Below are positions 21,078 through 36,304 of a stretch of DNA of 64,000 nt, one piece after another. The stretch is from Candidatus Thalassarchaeum betae. Its GTDB lineage: Archaea > Thermoplasmatota > Poseidoniia > Poseidoniales > Thalassarchaeaceae. Within the stretch, counting starts at the first letter, position 1. The number at the start of each line of letters is the position of its first letter. Below the pieces are notes generated by a model. The model had not been told where the DNA came from. It ran no database searches and saw only the letters and a list, made by a program, of their open reading frames with translations. The translations under genes and the position numbers were made by a program. Where the stretch lies: assembly GCA_022447095.1 (NCBI GenBank), contig JAKUUP010000003.1, forward strand, positions 1 to 64,000, in the 5' to 3' direction.

Positions 21078-24000
21078 ATGGTAGCGAGCGCTTCGCATAG
21101 GAACCCCGCAAGGTTGCGTCAAGTTGCCCTCGGCGCAGCAATGATGCTGCTGATGTCACTGTCTCCGGTACTCGTCCAGTTCGATACACCTCTCAGGATG
21201 GAGTCGGGTGACGGAACCGGAGAGCCATGGGTCGACGGGGGTCAACCATGGCCGCAGTCAGGTAGGACTCCAGACAAGGTTGCGGACGTCCCGACGCACA
21301 GTCCTGACGGGGGTGCTGGCAACGGCACACCAAGTGATGCGCCAGAGTTGATGTCGGTTGTCGAGCCGTCAGTGAACTGGGTCTACGGCTCCTACTCGAC
21401 TGGCACAGATGCTCTAGCCACCCCGATTGCAGATCTGTCTGCATCTGTTTCCAAAGACGAGGATGCTTCAGAACGCTGTGGCGGCAGTTCGCTTTACAGC
21501 ATCCTTGTACAGACTGATTCAAATTCAGATCACACCTACTTAAGAATCGTCGAGGGCGAGGATGCCGACCTCGCATGGGAGATCGACTTGGGCTTGACAG
21601 AGTACGTGAAGGCGGCCCCGATGGTAGTCGATATCGATGACGACGGCATGCAAGAGGTTCTCGTCGCTTACGATGCCTCTGGAACCCTCTATCTCGATGC
21701 TTGGTCCCCTAGGCTTACCTGCTCGGTCACGGGCTGGTCCTCCGGGGGTCATGAGGGCGAGTTGCTATGGTCATGGAGCGACGATTCTCTGATGATTAGC
21801 AGCGATGTGGGGCCATACACATGGAGCGGTCTGGGTGGGCACAAACCAACAGCCCAGCCCCTTCTCGCTGACTTGGATTTGGATGGGGATGCTGAGGTCG
21901 TCATCGCAGCCATAGATGAGGTCTCTGAGGATCCCGTTGTAGTCGCACTGGGGCTATCCAATAGCGGGGCTACCGCGTTGTGGGACGCTACCTTGGACAA
22001 GGGCAGCCACCCTTCCGACCCAGCTTTCGCTCAGACCGACGAGACTACCGGATACGTTCTCCTGACAACTACCCAACACAACAACGGGGCGATGTGGGTA
22101 TGGAAACTGGATTCGACGAGCGGTGATTCCAGTTGGGACGGGCTTTCTCTGGCCAACTCCGATGGTGACACGGACGCGCCCCACGTCAGGTTGCCTGGGC
22201 CTGTGATAGCCAACCTAGACGACGACTCCGCCCCTGAGATGGTACTCACGATACCTACGGATATCGACGGTTACAACTCTGCCGATGGGGCGGAGTTCAT
22301 CGGAATGGAAATCGGGAACGGCGATGAGTTGTGGTCATTCGAGGCTTCAAACGGTTACGCCGACGCGCCTCCGGTGGTAATCGACACCGATGGCAACGGG
22401 GAGCATGACAGGGTCTGCTGGGTCACTTGGTCTCAGGAGACCACAGACAGACACGGCCATGCAGGCTGCCACGATGTAGGCGGCTCCAGTCCCGACCAAG
22501 CCTGGCAGAAGGCCCTTGAGCAGAGCAGTGGTCTGCCTAACGACGAGATTGCGGTCGCCCCGCCTACATGGATGGACATAGATGGCGACGGAAAGCAGGA
22601 GTTACTCGTCGCATACGGGCGCTCCCTGTGGGCCTTCGATGGCGATGACGGTTCATCATCCACAGTCTGGGGAGGAGCGCTTGAACTCAGCCACAGAACC
22701 TGGTCAGCCCCCGCCCTTGCCGATATCGACGGAGATGCCACTCTGGACATAGTTCTCGGAGACACTGTCATCTCGTTAGCGATGGCCGATGTCAGGCCAC
22801 TGCTTGACCAGCGGGGCATAGAATTCAGCCCCAGCGCGCCCGACCCGGGCGAGACGGTGACCGTGACCGCATTCTTCGAGAACTCGGGGACCGCGGACAC
22901 CGATGGCGAGACCAATGCACTGCTGTATGCCAACGGTGAGGAGATAGGGAGTTATGAGGCAGGGACAATGGAACCCTCCGACCCCACTGGCTCAGGAGTC
23001 TTCGAATCGTTCAGCATAGAGTGGAGTGGGCCCTTGGGCGAGCACACTTTCGAACTGGTCCTCGACCCCTATGGCAACATCACACAAACAAGGCATGACA
23101 ACGACGCCCAAACGACTACGCTATCTATCGTAGCCGCTTACAACGCCACCTTTGAGATTTCTACTGAACCTGTGAGAATAGACCCCGGGGGCAGCGCCCT
23201 TGCAACTCCAAATGTCCGTTCGACAGGAAGGTTAGCAGGAAGTTGGAGTCTTGCTGTCGACGACTCCGCTCTGCCGGAGGGCTGGACTTGGAGTGACGAG
23301 ACCAGCGGAGGCTTGAGCGGTGTCGGGATAGACGTCGATGGAGTATGGACTCCAAACCTCCGCATTCACGCCCCAACAGACGCCCTAGGATCCGATGCGG
23401 GTCACCTTGGCCTTACTCTGACTCTAGACGACGACCCGGACAACGTCAGCGTTTCCGCTACGCTGCCGATCGAGGCCAACAGGAGTCGCGGCCTCTCACT
23501 GCGCGGTCCGGACGGGACTGCGTCAAGCACGGGATACGGGCTGATCGGCACGGACGCCCATGCATGGATGCTGCTCCACAACCTCGGCAACGCCGCAGAG
23601 AACCAGATAACTATCTCGTGGGATAGCACTTCTTGGGGCTCCGACCTCAGACTTTACGATACTAATGGCGACGAGCAACCGGCACTGGCTCTGGGTCCGA
23701 ATGAGGTGATGATACTAACCGCGAGGTTGGCGGTGCCGGACGACGTGTTGCTCGGAGAATCGGTCTCCACTCCTCTCTCAATGTGCGTTGGTAATGGCGA
23801 GGAAGAGACGTGTCAGACAATATTCCTGACTTTCGAGGCCGCGGGTGTCGTTGCCGATGTGCACCAGCGGAGCGTGCCGGCACAGGGCCTCGAATGGGCT
23901 ATCTACGCTGATATGCCCATTGGAGTGACGCAACTGACTTGGTCGCTCGCAGACGCTGGTATGACTGTTCAAGGATGGTCCTGGAGCGCGACTGGCGACT

Positions 24001-26678
24001 TGTCGGTCGCCGGAGACACAATCATCATGACAGAACTGGTAGAATCTCAGGCCGTCGGGACTCTGGTCCTCGACCTGCCCGATGATGCTCCTCCAGCCTT
24101 CCACTCCTTCTCCGATGCCAGTGACCAATCATCGGACCATGTTCTGAGGCTCTCACTCGAAGTCTTGCAGATTCACAGGGCCTCACTGGTAGTTACCTCT
24201 CCGACCGAACAACCTCACTTGGTAGAGGTCAGTGAGGAGGCTCTGGTAATGGTCCGCCTCGAGAATCCTGGCAACGGGGACGACACTTATCACTTGACTT
24301 ACGGAATCCTCCTCGACGAGAACATTACTGAGGATCCGGGCGTGGAGGTTTCATTCTCCAATGACATGGTGTCCTTGAGCGCAGGCAGTCTGACCAACAT
24401 ACCTGTAGCCGTTACACTACCTGATACTACTCCTGCTCGTGCCCCCGTCAGTATCGAGATATACATGACCTCAATGGGGGACCAGTCGGTTAGTGACTCG
24501 GACGTCGTGATTCTAGAGGCTAGGCAGGATCACCGATGGAACATCACCGCGAGCGTCGGTGAATCTACTGCCGGCGGGCGCACCTTCGCCGTTGCTCCAG
24601 GAGGGATGCTCGAAGTGAGTGTTGATGCGCAAAACATCGGTAATCTGAACGACGACCTGACTCTGACAGTGAGTTATGAAGTCACCTTGACGGGCGTTGA
24701 CGGCTCACAAGGCTGGGACTCTCAGGGAGATGCGGCAGTCGACGTCGGAGTGAATCAGACTGCACTGATGACGGTCAACGCGACCGTACCTGCAGATGCA
24801 TGGAACGGCTCTACGATGCAAGTAACCGTCACCGCCGTTGCTCAAGATGAGGATGTAGGTTCGTTCACCTTCGGTATCGAGGTGACTCATGTGCCAGCTT
24901 GGTCGGCCTCGGCTGACCAGACCTACCTCGATATACACCCCAATGGCTCAAGCATAGAATTGACTGTGATTCAGCAAGGCAACTCCCCCACGATTCCATA
25001 TGCTACAGTGTGGGTGAGTGGCGAGAGCGGTTGGGATGTTTCCGTCCCCGGCGAGCTCCCCGTACTTTCCCCCGGTGAGACTGCTCCTATGATGCTCAAT
25101 ATCACCCCGCCAGATACAGCGCAACACGGCAGGTCGGTGGAACTACACGTCAAACTTAGAGAAGGTGATGGCAATGGAGAGACAGAGATTACTCTGCCTC
25201 TGCGTGTCGCCATCATCAACGACTTCAATCTGAGCGGACAGGGTCCTTGGTTCGTATCTGACGATGGTGGACATCCGCTCGCGGAACTTCAGAACCTCGG
25301 TAACGCCCCCACTACCATCACCCTGCAGGTCCTGAGCCTGCCCAACGGGTGGACCGTAGCCGGGCAAACCGAAGTCGTCCTCGGCGTCGATGAGATTAGA
25401 GGTGTTCCTCTAGAGGTGATTCCGGCTTCTGACTGGGACGGCAGCGTCCGGACCATACGCATCCTCGCCGAGGACGCTGTAGGGAACCAGCGTGAGGTCG
25501 CTCTAGACACTGAGCAGTCGCCGTACTCCTGGGCATCCTCTCCCGTGGTAGTGGTAATGATGGGTGACCATGCCTTGCTTCAGATTCACGGCACTACCTC
25601 TGCTTCCAGTGTCGTCGATTCCTCATCAGGACAGTTGCAATGGGACGATAGGGGCGGCTGGGCGTTGCCGGCGGTCGCCGGTGGCGATGGCTCCTTGAGC
25701 GTGGGTTCATCCAGCCTCGGCTACGTCGCCCATGTCGTCGAGCCGTCTCTCAGGTCTGCTGAGTGTAATATTCTCGGTAGTTTCGAAGAGGTGGTGGCAC
25801 ATTGTTCTATATTCAATGGGACGGAGGCATTCTCATACTCGATTCTCCTCATCGACGATCAGGGAGTGATGCTGGATTCCGCGTCCGGTCAGGTCTCTGC
25901 AGGCTCCTCTCATGGCCCAATCAACCTCAGCGCTGAGGGCTGGAGTCCGGAGCCGGGTAGCAGGACCCTGACTCTGAGACTGCTGGACGGGAGGGGTTTC
26001 CAGGTCGCTGTGGACGAGACGGACTTCCTAGTCAGAAGGAGTGATTGGAACATAGGCCTGGTGGAACTAGAGCTTGACGGAGAAGGTTCGAACCAGGAAG
26101 TCAAGGTCCTCACTCGAAGGACCAACCACCAACTACTGACTGATGCCGACTGCCATCTCGCGGTAGTCGCAGGAGAACATTCCTCAACTCATCTGGTAGA
26201 TTGGAGCAGCACATTGGCCCCCATCTTCAGAATTGATCGTCCCGATGTCGATGATGGCGTCGAGATCGTGGTGACCATCGGATGCGAGTTCCCATGGGAC
26301 CTAGATTCCGACTCAAGCGATAACGAGGCCAGACTGATTCTCTCGGGCGGATCTGTGGGGCCCTCGGGGTACGCCGACATGGGAATTGCGGTGACTGCAG
26401 CCCTGCTGGTGATTGGCGTATCTCTGGCTTTCGCATGGATGCTAAGGAGTCATCGAGAAGGCAAGGAACTCATGGAGATGGCCATGGCGGCTGCAGAAGA
26501 GAGAGCGGCCAAGAAGCGTATCGAACCGGAGTCTTCCGACGCCCCTGAGCCTTCCCAAATGGAACAGGATGAAGATGAAGAGGACGGAGAAGAGGAAGAT
26601 GGACCTGAACCCGAAATAGAGGATGAGCCTTTGGATGATTTCGAGACCAGACTCAAGCGGCTCATGCGAGAAGACTAG
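21078..26678 (+). CDS. giant secreted FG-GAP/VCBS-repeat and CARDB-like surface protein (1866 aa) with C-terminal TM and acidic tail
   Basis: Signal-like LGAAMMLLMSLSPVLVQ; repeats DIDDDGMQEVLVAYD, ADLDLDGDAEVVIAAID, DIDGDGKQELLVAYG, DIDGDATLDIVLGD; CARDB-like VTAFFENSGTADTDGETNALLYANGEEIGSYE; C-term TM then ESSDAPEPSQMEQDEDEEDGEEEDGPEPEIEDEP. Confidence 0.9.
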   Translation: MVASASHRNPARLRQVALGAAMMLLMSLSPVLVQFDTPLRMESGDGTGEPWVDGGQPWPQSGRTPDKVADVPTHSPDGGAGNGTPSDAPELMSVVEPSVNWVYGSYSTGTDALATPIADLSASVSKDEDASERCGGSSLYSILVQTDSNSDHTYLRIVEGEDADLAWEIDLGLTEYVKAAPMVVDIDDDGMQEVLVAYDASGTLYLDAWSPRLTCSVTGWSSGGHEGELLWSWSDDSLMISSDVGPYTWSGLGGHKPTAQPLLADLDLDGDAEVVIAAIDEVSEDPVVVALGLSNSGATALWDATLDKGSHPSDPAFAQTDETTGYVLLTTTQHNNGAMWVWKLDSTSGDSSWDGLSLANSDGDTDAPHVRLPGPVIANLDDDSAPEMVLTIPTDIDGYNSADGAEFIGMEIGNGDELWSFEASNGYADAPPVVIDTDGNGEHDRVCWVTWSQETTDRHGHAGCHDVGGSSPDQAWQKALEQSSGLPNDEIAVAPPTWMDIDGDGKQELLVAYGRSLWAFDGDDGSSSTVWGGALELSHRTWSAPALADIDGDATLDIVLGDTVISLAMADVRPLLDQRGIEFSPSAPDPGETVTVTAFFENSGTADTDGETNALLYANGEEIGSYEAGTMEPSDPTGSGVFESFSIEWSGPLGEHTFELVLDPYGNITQTRHDNDAQTTTLSIVAAYNATFEISTEPVRIDPGGSALATPNVRSTGRLAGSWSLAVDDSALPEGWTWSDETSGGLSGVGIDVDGVWTPNLRIHAPTDALGSDAGHLGLTLTLDDDPDNVSVSATLPIEANRSRGLSLRGPDGTASSTGYGLIGTDAHAWMLLHNLGNAAENQITISWDSTSWGSDLRLYDTNGDEQPALALGPNEVMILTARLAVPDDVLLGESVSTPLSMCVGNGEEETCQTIFLTFEAAGVVADVHQRSVPAQGLEWAIYADMPIGVTQLTWSLADAGMTVQGWSWSATGDLSVAGDTIIMTELVESQAVGTLVLDLPDDAPPAFHSFSDASDQSSDHVLRLSLEVLQIHRASLVVTSPTEQPHLVEVSEEALVMVRLENPGNGDDTYHLTYGILLDENITEDPGVEVSFSNDMVSLSAGSLTNIPVAVTLPDTTPARAPVSIEIYMTSMGDQSVSDSDVVILEARQDHRWNITASVGESTAGGRTFAVAPGGMLEVSVDAQNIGNLNDDLTLTVSYEVTLTGVDGSQGWDSQGDAAVDVGVNQTALMTVNATVPADAWNGSTMQVTVTAVAQDEDVGSFTFGIEVTHVPAWSASADQTYLDIHPNGSSIELTVIQQGNSPTIPYATVWVSGESGWDVSVPGELPVLSPGETAPMMLNITPPDTAQHGRSVELHVKLREGDGNGETEITLPLRVAIINDFNLSGQGPWFVSDDGGHPLAELQNLGNAPTTITLQVLSLPNGWTVAGQTEVVLGVDEIRGVPLEVIPASDWDGSVRTIRILAEDAVGNQREVALDTEQSPYSWASSPVVVVMMGDHALLQIHGTTSASSVVDSSSGQLQWDDRGGWALPAVAGGDGSLSVGSSSLGYVAHVVEPSLRSAECNILGSFEEVVAHCSIFNGTEAFSYSILLIDDQGVMLDSASGQVSAGSSHGPINLSAEGWSPEPGSRTLTLRLLDGRGFQVAVDETDFLVRRSDWNIGLVELELDGEGSNQEVKVLTRRTNHQLLTDADCHLAVVAGEHSSTHLVDWSSTLAPIFRIDRPDVDDGVEIVVTIGCEFPWDLDSDSSDNEARLILSGGSVGPSGYADMGIAVTAALLVIGVSLAFAWMLRSHREGKELMEMAMAAAEERAAKKRIEPESSDAPEPSQMEQDEDEEDGEEEDGPEPEIEDEPLDDFETRLKRLMRED

Positions 26679-29293: not shown

Positions 29294-30280
29294 TCAGTTC
29301 CGTCTGACCACTTGGTAGATGATGAAAAGTGAAAGTAATGCTATTGCTATCCAGCGCCGGTCGAATTCATTCGCTGCATCTTCATCGTGAGACACGAATA
29401 GTTCCTGAGCAGTATCCAGAGGAGGGGAATTGTCCGAAGCCATCAACACGATTCCTTCTATGTGGTAGGGGGCGCCACCCCTCATGCCCTTGGAAACCGC
29501 CTTTGCGTTTGTCATAGAGGCCATTACGAAGTCGCAGGTGTCGGCCCTTCTGAGATCCTCAACAGCCTCGAATTCGCCACCGCTGTTCCAAGTCCTGAAT
29601 TCAATCCCTCGGTCCACTGAATAGTGGCTCTCCATCCGACTTACGACCATTCTGGAAATCTCGACCTCGTATCCCTCCATCTCAGCACTCTCGTCCAGTT
29701 TCGACATCGGCGAGCCCTGATCATACATACAGGCCACCATTTCCTTTTCGCCCTCTATTATACGATGGAGGGTGCCGCCCTCAGTAGGGGTTGGCCAATC
29801 GCCCATTACACTGGAGAAATCGGAACCCTTCAGTTCGGTCTCCCCGTGGAACCATGCCATGTATGCTTGCTGGCCGGTGCTTGATGAGAATACCTCCTCT
29901 AGAGCGGCGGAGATAGCATCGAGGAGTTCGGTGTTCCCCCTATCGTCCTGAGTATCGGTACGCACCACCGGAACATACGATTCGGTCTCCTCAATCATCT
30001 CGATGATGTAGAGGCCGGGCATATTGTCAGTGTTAGCCGGATCGGCAGCGATGAGGTGAGAAGTCAGCATGAAATCTTCTTCTCCAGACATCAAGGCACG
30101 CATGGCGAGCTGATGGTCCTCGTAGCCGTTTTCGATTATGTGCCCGTAAGAGCCGATTAGATGCGATACAGGTGTCTCCTGAGAGGAAGCGACGTTGTAC
30201 TGTACCCCTCCTAATGCTACTATGGGAGTTGCCGACAGAACCAATGCACTGAGGAAGAGTGCGAACTTCGCGCTCCTCAT
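29294..30280 (-). CDS. SBP_bac_3-like amino-acid substrate-binding protein, apparently lobe-permuted, signal peptide and C-terminal TM anchor
   Basis: N-term FALFLSALVLSATPIVALGG; lobe-2-like section ends NTELLDAISAALEEVFSSSTGQQAYMAWFHGE; followed by lobe-1-like EMVACMYDQGSPMSKLDESAEMEGYEVEISRMVVSRM...FRTWNSGGEFEAVEDLRRADTCDFVMASMTNAKAVSKGMRGGAPYHIEGIVLM; C-term WIAIALLSLFIIYQVVRRN. Confidence 0.7.
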   Translation of the reverse strand: MRSAKFALFLSALVLSATPIVALGGVQYNVASSQETPVSHLIGSYGHIIENGYEDHQLAMRALMSGEEDFMLTSHLIAADPANTDNMPGLYIIEMIEETESYVPVVRTDTQDDRGNTELLDAISAALEEVFSSSTGQQAYMAWFHGETELKGSDFSSVMGDWPTPTEGGTLHRIIEGEKEMVACMYDQGSPMSKLDESAEMEGYEVEISRMVVSRMESHYSVDRGIEFRTWNSGGEFEAVEDLRRADTCDFVMASMTNAKAVSKGMRGGAPYHIEGIVLMASDNSPPLDTAQELFVSHDEDAANEFDRRWIAIALLSLFIIYQVVRRN

Positions 30281-30340: not shown

Positions 30341-32659
30341 ATGCACGTCAGAAGCCGGGGGTTCGCGTTGTCAGAGGCTGTCTCAAGAGTGCTCAACCCT
30401 CTGGGGAAGAAGAGTAATCGTCTAGTCGCAATCCTATCGTTTGTGATCCTCATCACTCTGATTACTCCTACCCAAGCGGTCGATTACAACAGCGGTTGGG
30501 ATGTCGCCGACAGTGGTACTGAAGTGGACCTCTTCACGGCGGCCTACGATGGTGAATCGGTCTTTGCTTTCGGTGCTGGAGGGGTGATTCTCCAAAGCGC
30601 CGACAAGGGCGCCACATGGGTGCAACTGGATTCACCTGCTACGACCAGCCTGCATGCGTCAGACTCTGTCGAAGGCGCAATCGCGGTAGTCGGAGAGGGA
30701 GGAGCGGCTTTCCTGCGTGCTGCTGGCAGCGATACATGGCTGGACATCTCCCTGAACCCGCCCGTCGACTTCAGGGGAATGGCGATGACCAGCGCTACTT
30801 CACTGGTCGCCGTAGGCCCTGAAGGGGGCGTCTGGCAATACTCTAGCGATGCTTGGATGCAAAGGGATTCCGGAGTAGTCACAGATCTCAACGATGTGTC
30901 CTTCCTCGATTCCACCCTAGGGATGATAGTGGGAGACAGCGGCACCATCCTTGCTACCAATGACGGAGGCGAAAGTTGGGAGTACAGGGAGGCCCCGGAA
31001 GGGTTGGTTGCGGACATAGTAGCACTCGATTATTACAGTAACATCAGGGTATATGCGGTAACGGACGAGGGGAACATCCTAAAATCGGTTGGAACGACTA
31101 CTGGCACCGCGGCCGGTTATGTCTGGGAACTAGTCGAGATTGAATCGGCGGGCAGAGCCACCAGCCTAGGATTAGAGTTGAGTTCCATTGACGTATCATC
31201 TGTGAACAAGTTACTCGTCTCAGGCCCCTCAAGCTACGTTGCTCTGTCGCTAGATGGAGGCAACATCATCACCTCTCAGATGAACCCACTACCTAGCGTC
31301 AAGGACTTCAATCACGTCTTGTTCCTCAATCTGTTCGATGCAGTAATTGTAGGTGCTGATGGAGTTATATTATTTTCAGAAAATGCCGGAGAGGACGAGG
31401 CGATTGGATTTCAGGTAATCGATTACGGCGACTTCGGGCAGTTCGTCGACTACTCAAAGGGAATGCTGATTGATGGGCTATTCGCGACTATCAGAATTGT
31501 TCTATTCGGAATCTTCCTTGGTTTCTTCCTCGGTGTCATACTCTCGATGATGAAGACCGCCCCCACTACCCTGAAGGATGTTGCACAACTCGATAGATAC
31601 TCTATAATCAGAATAATTCTAATCCCATTATGTATCATTGAGGCTGCCATTCCTTTCATTCGATTAAATGAGAAATCGTGGTCTGCAACAAGAGCAGTAG
31701 GGAGGTTGCGTACTCTGTCCGCCACTTCTACGAGACCGCTCAACACCCTAGCCCTGAGGGCACTGGGATTGGGGATGCTATACTACGGGATTTCGCTGAT
31801 TTTCGCTTTAGCTCCGATAGTTTGGGCCCTAAATCTGGACGGTTTGGAATACATCTACGCGCCTATAGGCCTCATATCTCCGGATGGTATCAATGGAGAG
31901 TTATATTTCGAGAACTTTTTCCAAGCCCTACTTGGTATTGCGTTGATCCTGTTGGGCCTACTGTTCCTGACCTCGAGGAAATTCTTCCTCAAGAGAGAGG
32001 TGCGCCTGCCGTTCCGCGACATCACGCTAAAGTGGAATTTCTGGGGAGTGAGGCCGTTGAACGCTGTCGCAACCGTATACACCGACCTCTTTCGCAATAC
32101 TCCACTGATTGTTCAGTTCATGTTCATACACTTCGGGGTGCAGTTTGGCAAGTTGTTGGGAGATCCGGCTGCGGCAATCCTTGAGGGTGAAACGAATTCC
32201 TTCCTAGTATACATCAGAGACACGATTCTATCAGACAGGGCATGTGTTAGCGCCATCTTCGCTCTTGGCCTGAATTCAGGAGCATATCAGTGCGAGACGA
32301 TACGTGGTGCTATCGCAGCGATTCCCTCTGGCCAGATGGAGGCGGGCAGGAGCATTGGACTGAATTATATGCAGACGATGGGGCTGGTCATCATGCCTCA
32401 GGCAATCAGAATTTGCATACCTCCTATGGGTAATGAAATGGTCAACCTCGTGCTCAACTCATCACTCGCAATGGTCATCGGCTATGCTGAACTAACTAGA
32501 AAGGGACGGCTAATCAACGCCGTTACCTTCCAACTCTTCTGGGGTTATGGCATGGTACTGGTATCTTACTTCGTTGTAACTTGGACGCTGGCTCTGCTCT
32601 TGAGGCATCTCGAGAACAAGTCGAGGATACCTGGACTTGGAATTTCAGGGGGTGCATGA
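30341..32659 (+). CDS. amino-acid ABC transporter permease (HisM/GlnP type) with N-terminal Ycf48/BNR-like propeller and internal TM insertion
   Basis: BNR-like LQSADKGATWVQLDSP, LATNDGGESWEYREAPEGL, then GLFATIRIVLFGIFLGFFLGVILSMMK ... VYTDLFRNTPLIVQFMFIHFG ... EAGRSIGLNYMQTMGLVIMPQAIRICIPPMGNEMVNLVLNSSLAMVIGYAELT. Confidence 0.85.
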   Translation: MHVRSRGFALSEAVSRVLNPLGKKSNRLVAILSFVILITLITPTQAVDYNSGWDVADSGTEVDLFTAAYDGESVFAFGAGGVILQSADKGATWVQLDSPATTSLHASDSVEGAIAVVGEGGAAFLRAAGSDTWLDISLNPPVDFRGMAMTSATSLVAVGPEGGVWQYSSDAWMQRDSGVVTDLNDVSFLDSTLGMIVGDSGTILATNDGGESWEYREAPEGLVADIVALDYYSNIRVYAVTDEGNILKSVGTTTGTAAGYVWELVEIESAGRATSLGLELSSIDVSSVNKLLVSGPSSYVALSLDGGNIITSQMNPLPSVKDFNHVLFLNLFDAVIVGADGVILFSENAGEDEAIGFQVIDYGDFGQFVDYSKGMLIDGLFATIRIVLFGIFLGFFLGVILSMMKTAPTTLKDVAQLDRYSIIRIILIPLCIIEAAIPFIRLNEKSWSATRAVGRLRTLSATSTRPLNTLALRALGLGMLYYGISLIFALAPIVWALNLDGLEYIYAPIGLISPDGINGELYFENFFQALLGIALILLGLLFLTSRKFFLKREVRLPFRDITLKWNFWGVRPLNAVATVYTDLFRNTPLIVQFMFIHFGVQFGKLLGDPAAAILEGETNSFLVYIRDTILSDRACVSAIFALGLNSGAYQCETIRGAIAAIPSGQMEAGRSIGLNYMQTMGLVIMPQAIRICIPPMGNEMVNLVLNSSLAMVIGYAELTRKGRLINAVTFQLFWGYGMVLVSYFVVTWTLALLLRHLENKSRIPGLGISGGA

Positions 32660-33496
32660 ATGCCGGGGAATGTGTTGAGTGTCACTGACATGCACAAGAT
32701 CTACCCCGGAGGGGTCCATGCCGTCCGAGGCATCTCGTTCGAGGTAAACGAAGGGGAATCTGTAGCAATCATAGGGTCCTCAGGAAGCGGTAAGTCGACT
32801 GTTCTGCGATGCATCAACCGACTAATCGAACCCACCGAAGGAGTCGTGCGTCTGCGCGGCGAACACATCAACACCCCCGGGGCCGATATCAACGATGTCA
32901 GATCGAGAATTGGGATGGTTTTCCAGTCATTCGAATTGTTTGCACACCTGAAGGTCATCGACAACGTGACACTAGGTCTGAGACATGTCAGAAAGATGAG
33001 CAAGAACGAGGCCAAAGAGATAGCGATGTCCGCTCTTGAGCGTGTTGACCTTCTTGATCGAGTTGATGCGTACCCCGGAAATCTCTCTGGTGGACAGAAG
33101 CAAAGGGTAGCCATCGCCCGGGCTCTCGCGATGCGTCCCGAGGTTATGTTGTTCGACGAACCGACCAGCGCCTTGGACCCCGAACTGATAGGCTCGGTCC
33201 TAGCTACCATTAGAGGACTGGCTGACGAGGGCATGACGATGGTGATCGTAACTCACGAAATCAGTTTCGCAAGGGACGTTGCTGACCGCATCATCTACCT
33301 AGACGAGGGGGTTGTGGCCGAGGAGGGGCCCTCATCAATCATAGAGGAACCCCGGACTGAACGGCTCAAGAGGTTCCTGTCCTCGATACACGAAGATGAG
33401 GTCCCAGAGCAAATCCACGAAGAATTGGTGGATGAGGATACTGATTATGGATACGTTCCTGATGGTAGAGGAGAACGGCCACGTGGAGGCCGCTGA
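32660..33496 (+). CDS. amino-acid ABC transporter ATP-binding protein (GlnQ type)
   Basis: Walker A GSSGSGKSTVLRCINRL, signature LSGGQKQRVAIARALAMRPEVMLFDEPTSALDPEL, H-loop VIVTHEISFARDVADRIIYLDEG. Confidence 0.96.
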   Translation: MPGNVLSVTDMHKIYPGGVHAVRGISFEVNEGESVAIIGSSGSGKSTVLRCINRLIEPTEGVVRLRGEHINTPGADINDVRSRIGMVFQSFELFAHLKVIDNVTLGLRHVRKMSKNEAKEIAMSALERVDLLDRVDAYPGNLSGGQKQRVAIARALAMRPEVMLFDEPTSALDPELIGSVLATIRGLADEGMTMVIVTHEISFARDVADRIIYLDEGVVAEEGPSSIIEEPRTERLKRFLSSIHEDEVPEQIHEELVDEDTDYGYVPDGRGERPRGGR

Positions 33497-33504
33497 GAAA
33501 TTCC

Positions 33505-36304
<2,800 letters not shown>

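What the first reader, a model, noticed from the sequence alone, without database searches (positions are those of the whole stretch)
30341..32659. ABC amino-acid permease fused to an N-terminal Ycf48/BNR-like extracellular propeller
Seen: a signal-like TM, then repeated units (VILQSADKGATWVQL; VWQYSSDAWMQRDS; ILATNDGGESWEYREAP; ILKSVG...; VILFSENAGED) to about 31400, running in frame into a HisM-type permease with canonical 'GLFATIRIVLFG..LG', 'DLFRNTPLIVQ' and the EAA-loop 'EAGRSIGLNYMQTMGLVIMPQAIR'. Established: Ycf48/BNR repeats form propellers (photosystem II assembly factor, sialidase Asp-boxes), and HisM permeases are normally ~220 aa with no such domain. Inference: the propeller may dock the tethered SBP, bind substrate or sense the envelope.
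Basis: partly seen in the sequence, partly recalled or inferred. Interest (0 to 1): 0.8.

Follow-up and report, generated by a model that had tools for sequence, protein, structure and literature searches.

The report
Amino-acid importer permease wearing a propeller
In a family of uncultivated ocean archaea the membrane channel of an amino-acid importer is built in one piece with an outer seven-bladed protein wheel otherwise known from photosystem assembly, and it sits beside a shuffled binding protein that many relatives have lost, so it may show how a well-known importer design works with a different outer part.

Summary
The fusion is real. ORF 30341-32659 (772 aa) is one open frame that passes the Pfam cut-offs for both PSII_BNR/Ycf48 and BPD_transp_1. 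AlphaFold2 gives a confident seven-bladed propeller (residues ~48-356); the best PDB matches are all Ycf48. It is no assembly artefact: about 90 Thalassarchaeaceae (marine group II) genomes and four genomes of another order in the class carry it, and 38/38 aligned relatives hit both domains. I found it in no other family of the order.

The next gene is a GlnQ-type ATPase with adjoining start codon. Upstream, divergent, lies a membrane-anchored type-3 substrate-binding protein (SBP) that is circularly permuted; in the best homologue the breakpoint falls between residues 115 and 116 of a solved binding protein. In the other order this SBP keeps the amino-acid-binding Arg and Asp. In the window's family it has lost them, and most genomes have lost the gene (at least three changes), while propeller and permease stay under purifying selection.

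Best reading: a homodimeric polar-amino-acid ABC importer with a tethered extracellular propeller that docks proteins, originally its permuted SBP. The propeller's role is inferred. New variant of a known kind.

The parts
30341..32659 (+). Propeller-permease fusion, 772 aa. The exact start codon is uncertain: the first ~24 residues are poorly conserved and of low model confidence.
   Evidence: One open frame with both Pfam domains; conserved in relatives
30416..30481 (+). Signal-like hydrophobic segment, about residues 26-47
   Evidence: Hydropathy and helix 24-41 in the model
30482..31408 (+). Extracytoplasmic Ycf48-type seven-bladed propeller, about residues 48-356
   Evidence: PSII_BNR above cut-off; confident model; best PDB matches all Ycf48
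31436..31555 (+). First helix of the permease, about residues 366-405
   Evidence: Model helix 365-405; aligns with the start of ArtQ 4yms
31556..32044 (+). Lineage-specific insert with extra hydrophobic helices, residues 406-568
   Evidence: Length varies in the family, 22 aa in the other order
32045..32626 (+). HisM/GlnP-type permease core with EAA loop, about residues 569-762
   Evidence: BPD_transp_1 571-759, HEQRo_perm_3TM, 4yms
32660..33496 (+). GlnQ-type ABC ATPase; its ATG follows the stop codon of the fusion directly
   Evidence: ABC_tran and GlnQ models; follows the fusion in relatives
29294..30280 (-). Circularly permuted SBP_bac_3 protein, 328 aa, with signal sequence and C-terminal membrane helix
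   Evidence: Profile halves in swapped order; model; neighbour of the fusion in 17 of 17 genomes that have it
29831..30199 (-). SBP residues ~28-150: corresponds to the usual C-terminal half
29381..29803 (-). SBP residues ~160-300: corresponds to the usual N-terminal half
29303..29359 (-). C-terminal membrane anchor of the SBP, about residues 308-326
   Evidence: Helix 299-327 in the model; sequence

Best explanation
This is a polar-amino-acid (PAAT, HisM/GlnP type) ABC importer whose single permease carries an extracytoplasmic Ycf48-type seven-bladed propeller on its N-terminus. Shown: one polypeptide with both domains, an adjoining GlnQ-type ATPase, and a divergent, membrane-anchored, circularly permuted type-3 SBP. 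Inferred: the permease works as a homodimer with an ATPase dimer, so two propellers stand on the outer face, on the terminus that faces outward. The propeller is a protein-docking platform, as Ycf48 is for its membrane-protein partners. It positioned the tethered SBP over the permease, and in lineages that lost this SBP it is kept to recruit another extracellular protein (for example AapJ, or a peptidase that releases amino acids) or to stabilise the outward face of the dimer.
For: Both domains above Pfam cut-offs and contiguous in all 38 aligned relatives. Ycf48 is the best fold match. ATPase of the amino-acid type adjoins. The SBP-fusion-ATPase module is shared with another order of the class, so it is ancient. 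The SBP gene, where present, is always next to the fusion. Propeller under purifying selection, median dN/dS 0.12-0.15. Fused receptor domains at this same N-terminal position are known in GlnPQ (PMC11331510) and seen here in another family of the phylum. Ycf48 binds membrane-protein partners (PMC8038367).
Against: No direct evidence of contact between propeller and SBP, and none of transport. Many genomes keep the fusion without this SBP. The propeller is much less conserved than the permease core (mean entropy 1.75 against 0.73 bits) and no face stands out as a binding site. The permease half of the model is of low confidence. Substrate unknown.
Confidence: 0.45

Rival explanations
1. The propeller has taken over substrate capture, so the fusion plus ATPase is a type-I importer that works without a free SBP. 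The permuted SBP is a degenerating relic or has turned into a regulator.
For: The SBP lost the Arg and Asp aligned with the ligand-binding residues in all 15 aligned copies of the window's family, and the gene is missing in most genomes with the fusion. The listed SBP_bac_3 hits in SBP-less genomes belong to other operons. Propeller still constrained there.
Against: No type-I importer with a propeller receptor is known to me. In the other order a good SBP coexists with the propeller, so the propeller did not arise as a replacement. AapJ-like SBPs could serve two permeases. No conserved ligand site found.
Confidence: 0.2
2. The propeller is an assembly or stability factor for the permease dimer, as Ycf48 is for photosystem II, with no part in the transport cycle.
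For: Closest relative is an assembly factor (PMC8038367). Explains retention with or without the SBP.
Against: A covalent, permanent fusion is unusual for an assembly factor, and other PAAT permeases of the same genomes (Aap operon) do without it.
Confidence: 0.2
3. The complex has become a sensor or regulator of uptake or of the cell envelope and no longer imports anything.
For: SBP pocket lost in the window's family; unusual extracellular domain.
Against: Permease core strongly conserved (dN/dS 0.02-0.04) and an ATPase with intact motifs follows; no signalling domain in the fusion.
Confidence: 0.1
4. Assembly chimera or sequencing join of two genes.
For: The window's genome is an incomplete assembly in 70 contigs.
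Against: The same fusion occurs in about 90 separately assembled genomes, at identities down to about 40%, and in four genomes of another order.
Confidence: 0.01

Closest known systems
HisM/GlnP/ArtQ polar-amino-acid permeases (PAAT; PF00528, TIGR01726; ArtQ structure 4yms)
   Same: Permease core, EAA loop, GlnQ-type ATPase beside it, type-3 SBP nearby
   Different: Carries an N-terminal propeller and, in this family, an insert with extra helices; known members are about 220 aa
Ycf48/HCF136 photosystem II assembly factors (PF14870; 2xbg, 5oj5)
   Same: Seven-bladed propeller fold, best structural matches, secreted side of a membrane
   Different: Fused to a permease, in non-photosynthetic archaea; about 16% identity over the fold; equivalog model far below its cut-off
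GlnPQ-type importers with N-terminally fused SBP domains (PMC11331510; also L164, L165 here)
   Same: Extracellular domain fused to the N-terminus of a PAAT permease
   Different: The fused domain is a propeller, not an SBP
TpMglB-2, circularly permuted sugar-binding lipoprotein of Treponema (PMC4990184)
   Same: Naturally permuted, tethered binding protein of an ABC transporter
   Different: Other class of binding protein (sugar, type I); the SBP here is type 3, amino-acid type, and anchored by a C-terminal helix
Aap general L-amino-acid transporter (AapJQMP), described for this family in PMC9723583
   Same: PAAT permease and ATPase in the same organisms
   Different: A separate complete operon with two permeases and a lipoprotein SBP in normal order; no propeller

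Membership tests
PAAT/HisM-type ABC permease | BPD_transp_1 and PAAT-type 3TM region above curated cut-offs | tested here: met
   PF00528 51.9 bits, TIGR01726 55.6 bits
PAAT/HisM-type ABC permease | Amino-acid-type ATPase encoded with it | tested here: met
   GlnQ-type ATPase starts at the next base
PAAT/HisM-type ABC permease | Compact permease of about 220 aa without other domains | tested here: not met
   772 aa with propeller and insert
PAAT/HisM-type ABC permease | A working type-3 SBP as partner | tested here: inconclusive
   SBP beside it lacks the ligand residues; absent in many relatives
Ycf48/HCF136 | PSII_BNR profile above cut-off | tested here: met
   46.6 bits against 27
Ycf48/HCF136 | Seven-bladed propeller fold | tested here: met
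   Model and fold search
Ycf48/HCF136 | Single-domain lumenal or lipoprotein | tested here: not met
   Fused to a permease
Ycf48/HCF136 | Ycf48 equivalog model above cut-off | tested here: not met
   NF010237 45.1 bits against 326
Ycf48/HCF136 | Binding of photosystem subunits | not testable with these tools
   No binding data can be had here
SBP_bac_3 (type-3 amino-acid SBP), for the neighbour 29294-30280 | SBP_bac_3 profile above cut-off | tested here: met
   35.9 bits against 26.4
SBP_bac_3 (type-3 amino-acid SBP), for the neighbour 29294-30280 | Usual order of the two halves | tested here: not met
   Swapped order
SBP_bac_3 (type-3 amino-acid SBP), for the neighbour 29294-30280 | Conserved ligand-binding Arg and Asp | tested here: not met
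   Lost in the window's family, kept in the other order
GlnPQ-type fused importer | SBP domain fused to the N-terminus of the permease | tested here: not met
   Fused domain is a propeller
AapJQMP | Two permeases with AapJ-type SBP in one operon | tested here: not met
   One permease here; the Aap operon lies elsewhere

The most novel reading that the evidence does not exclude
The propeller is the substrate receptor of a type-I ABC importer that no longer needs a substrate-binding protein; the permuted SBP first lost its pocket and then, repeatedly, its gene.
Probability: 0.2. Interest if true: 0.85.

Novelty: new variant of a known kind. Interest (0 to 1): 0.6.

Why it matters
Type-I ABC importers are taught as needing a bilobed binding protein. 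Here an ancient, conserved importer module carries a different extracellular domain, and its binding protein can be seen losing the ligand site and then the gene while the transporter stays under selection. That makes a testable case of how the outside of an importer can be rebuilt by evolution. It also adds an importer that I found no description of in a very abundant but uncultivated group of ocean archaea, and a natural circular permutation of an amino-acid-type binding protein (paper searches; open-licence library only).

Tried and rejected
Assembly chimera: rejected. The permuted SBP-LivK protein on contig C16 of the same genome as partner: rejected, because in relatives that protein lies in an operon with a fused Liv-type permease and two further ATPases. 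The fusion as the missing AapM of a split Aap system 65-77 kb away: rejected, because the Aap operon has its own second permease and ATPase. Linear fold search of the SBP gives only TM about 0.3, which is what a permuted chain would give but proves nothing, so I relied on sequence tests. A conserved ligand face of the propeller: looked for by loop and strand entropy, nothing decisive. The Ycf48 crystal-structure paper is not in the library, so its Arg patch could not be compared. Plasmid search: no fusion covering 80% of the query.

Full report
What is there. The ORF at 30341-32659 encodes 772 aa in one frame without a stop. A hydrophobic segment at about residues 26-47 is followed by a region that passes the Pfam cut-off for PSII_BNR (Ycf48) and by a region that passes the cut-off for BPD_transp_1. 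NCBIfam gives HEQRo_perm_3TM above its cut-off, with GlnP, HisM and cystine permease models below theirs; the Ycf48 equivalog model is matched far below its cut-off. By sequence the best solved relatives are the ArtQ permease 4yms and Ycf48 proteins. The window's genome holds no other PSII_BNR match.

Structure. An AlphaFold2 model from 38 relatives has a confident propeller: ten-residue blocks from 51 to 350 score 83-94, except one weaker block (59) at 251-260. I count seven blades. The permease half is of low confidence. Against the PDB the twelve best matches are all Ycf48, TM-score 0.72-0.77 by target length. The propeller core is conserved in glycines and tryptophans; the most conserved charged and polar positions are R216, R236, E268, K290 and Q313.

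Not an artefact. A family-wide search finds strong matches in six genera, about 90 genomes of 148, and a pattern scan finds 72 loci in the public genome collection, titled Marine Group II, Thalassarchaeum, Poseidoniales or simply Euryarchaeota. No match occurs elsewhere in the order. A profile search over the phylum finds the same fusion in four genomes of a different order of the class, as 613-620 aa proteins with almost no insert. They come from contigs of 4-7 kb, so their binning could be questioned, but together they form a deep, fully supported clade. Other permease matches in the phylum are mostly plain 220-270 aa proteins.

The permease. In the window's family 94-252 residues lie between alignment positions 400 and 568, with extra hydrophobic helices; the other order has 22 residues between 405 and 568 against 163 in the window. 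HisM-type permeases are reported with the N-terminus outside (own knowledge), which fits an exported N-terminal domain. One permease gene and one ATPase gene suggest a homodimer, as for ArtQ (inference).

The neighbourhood. A GlnQ-type ATPase starts at the base after the stop codon and follows the fusion in nearly every locus with enough flank. A glutamate dehydrogenase gene often lies convergently behind it. Divergently upstream is a 328 aa SBP with a signal sequence and a C-terminal membrane helix.

The SBP is circularly permuted. In the window the SBP_bac_3 profile positions 89-131 come before 4-98 on the coding strand, although both stretches are weak in that search. Swapping the halves on paper turns out-of-order matches to TIGR01096 into one match over profile 36-250, and the score rises from 23.2 to 30.9 bits. 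The homologue in the other order shows it best: its residues 175-287 match residues 9-115, and its residues 29-141 match residues 116-232, of the binding protein 4zv1, so the breakpoint is exact. The window-family profile shows the same swap. The model of the window SBP has mean pLDDT 82.

History. In the other order the SBP keeps the motifs aligned with the ligand-binding Arg and Asp of solved proteins (that these two residues bind the ligand is own knowledge of the family). In the 15 aligned copies from the window's family both are replaced. Only 17 genomes of 148 have a strong full-length hit for this SBP, always next to the fusion. In most other loci the gene directly upstream is SAICAR synthetase. 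On a tree of 41 fusion proteins the presence of the SBP needs 4 changes, at least 3 forced by well-supported branches. Because the divergent arrangement is shared with the other order, I read these as losses. In SBP-less genomes the listed SBP_bac_3 hits are mostly an AapJ-like lipoprotein of the Aap operon or a protein of about 1050 aa in a Liv-type operon; very divergent SBPs and assembly gaps remain possible. The propeller is still constrained there: median dN/dS 0.15 against 0.12 where the SBP is present; permease core 0.02-0.04.

Mechanism. Shown: domain make-up, conservation, operon, permutation, loss of ligand residues and patchy loss of the SBP gene. Inferred: an amino-acid importer with the propeller as an outer docking platform. 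N-terminal SBP domains in GlnPQ (PMC11331510), and tandem SBP-permease fusions seen here in another family of the phylum, show that receptor domains can sit at this position. Ycf48 propellers bind membrane-protein partners (PMC8038367). The rival that the propeller itself is the receptor is not excluded and is the most novel reading. TpMglB-2 is a published precedent for a permuted, tethered binding protein of another class (PMC4990184). The aapJ and livK genes of this family are known and highly transcribed (PMC9723583); the passages read there do not mention the fusion.

Verdict. The finding is real, conserved and, as far as an open-licence library shows, undescribed. It is a new variant of a known importer kind; the role of the propeller is open.

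Noticed in passing
L144:1896-5003; own genome contig C16:18739-19494 (L149:2545-4620): A second circularly permuted SBP_bac_3 domain with a different breakpoint (profile 35-131 before 2-39), fused to a LivK-type Peripla_BP_6 domain in one lipoprotein of about 1050 aa. It shares the linker motif PTPTEG with the window's SBP.
   Followed up: partly
L144:5095-8817, L145:5150-9034: A permease of about 1240-1295 aa with two BPD_transp_2 stretches, apparently LivH and LivM in one chain, in the same Liv-type operon.
   Followed up: partly
L165:59-3913, L164:1376-3580: In another Thermoplasmatota family, four (or two) SBP_bac_3 domains in tandem are fused to the N-terminus of a PAAT permease.
   Followed up: partly
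L146, L147, L151, L148: A separate complete Aap-like operon (AapJ lipoprotein, two large permeases, ATPase); in the window's genome it is cut by a contig end.
   Followed up: partly
L167:1380-3050 (-): A stand-alone predicted secreted protein with Ycf48-like repeats in another Thermoplasmatota genome; a possible relative of the fused domain.
   Followed up: no
window 33505-35034 (-): Glutamate dehydrogenase gene that lies convergently behind the ATPase in many relatives; synteny or a hint to glutamate as substrate.
   Followed up: no
window 21078-26678 (+): A 1866 aa secreted protein with one C-terminal membrane helix and an acidic tail.
   Followed up: no
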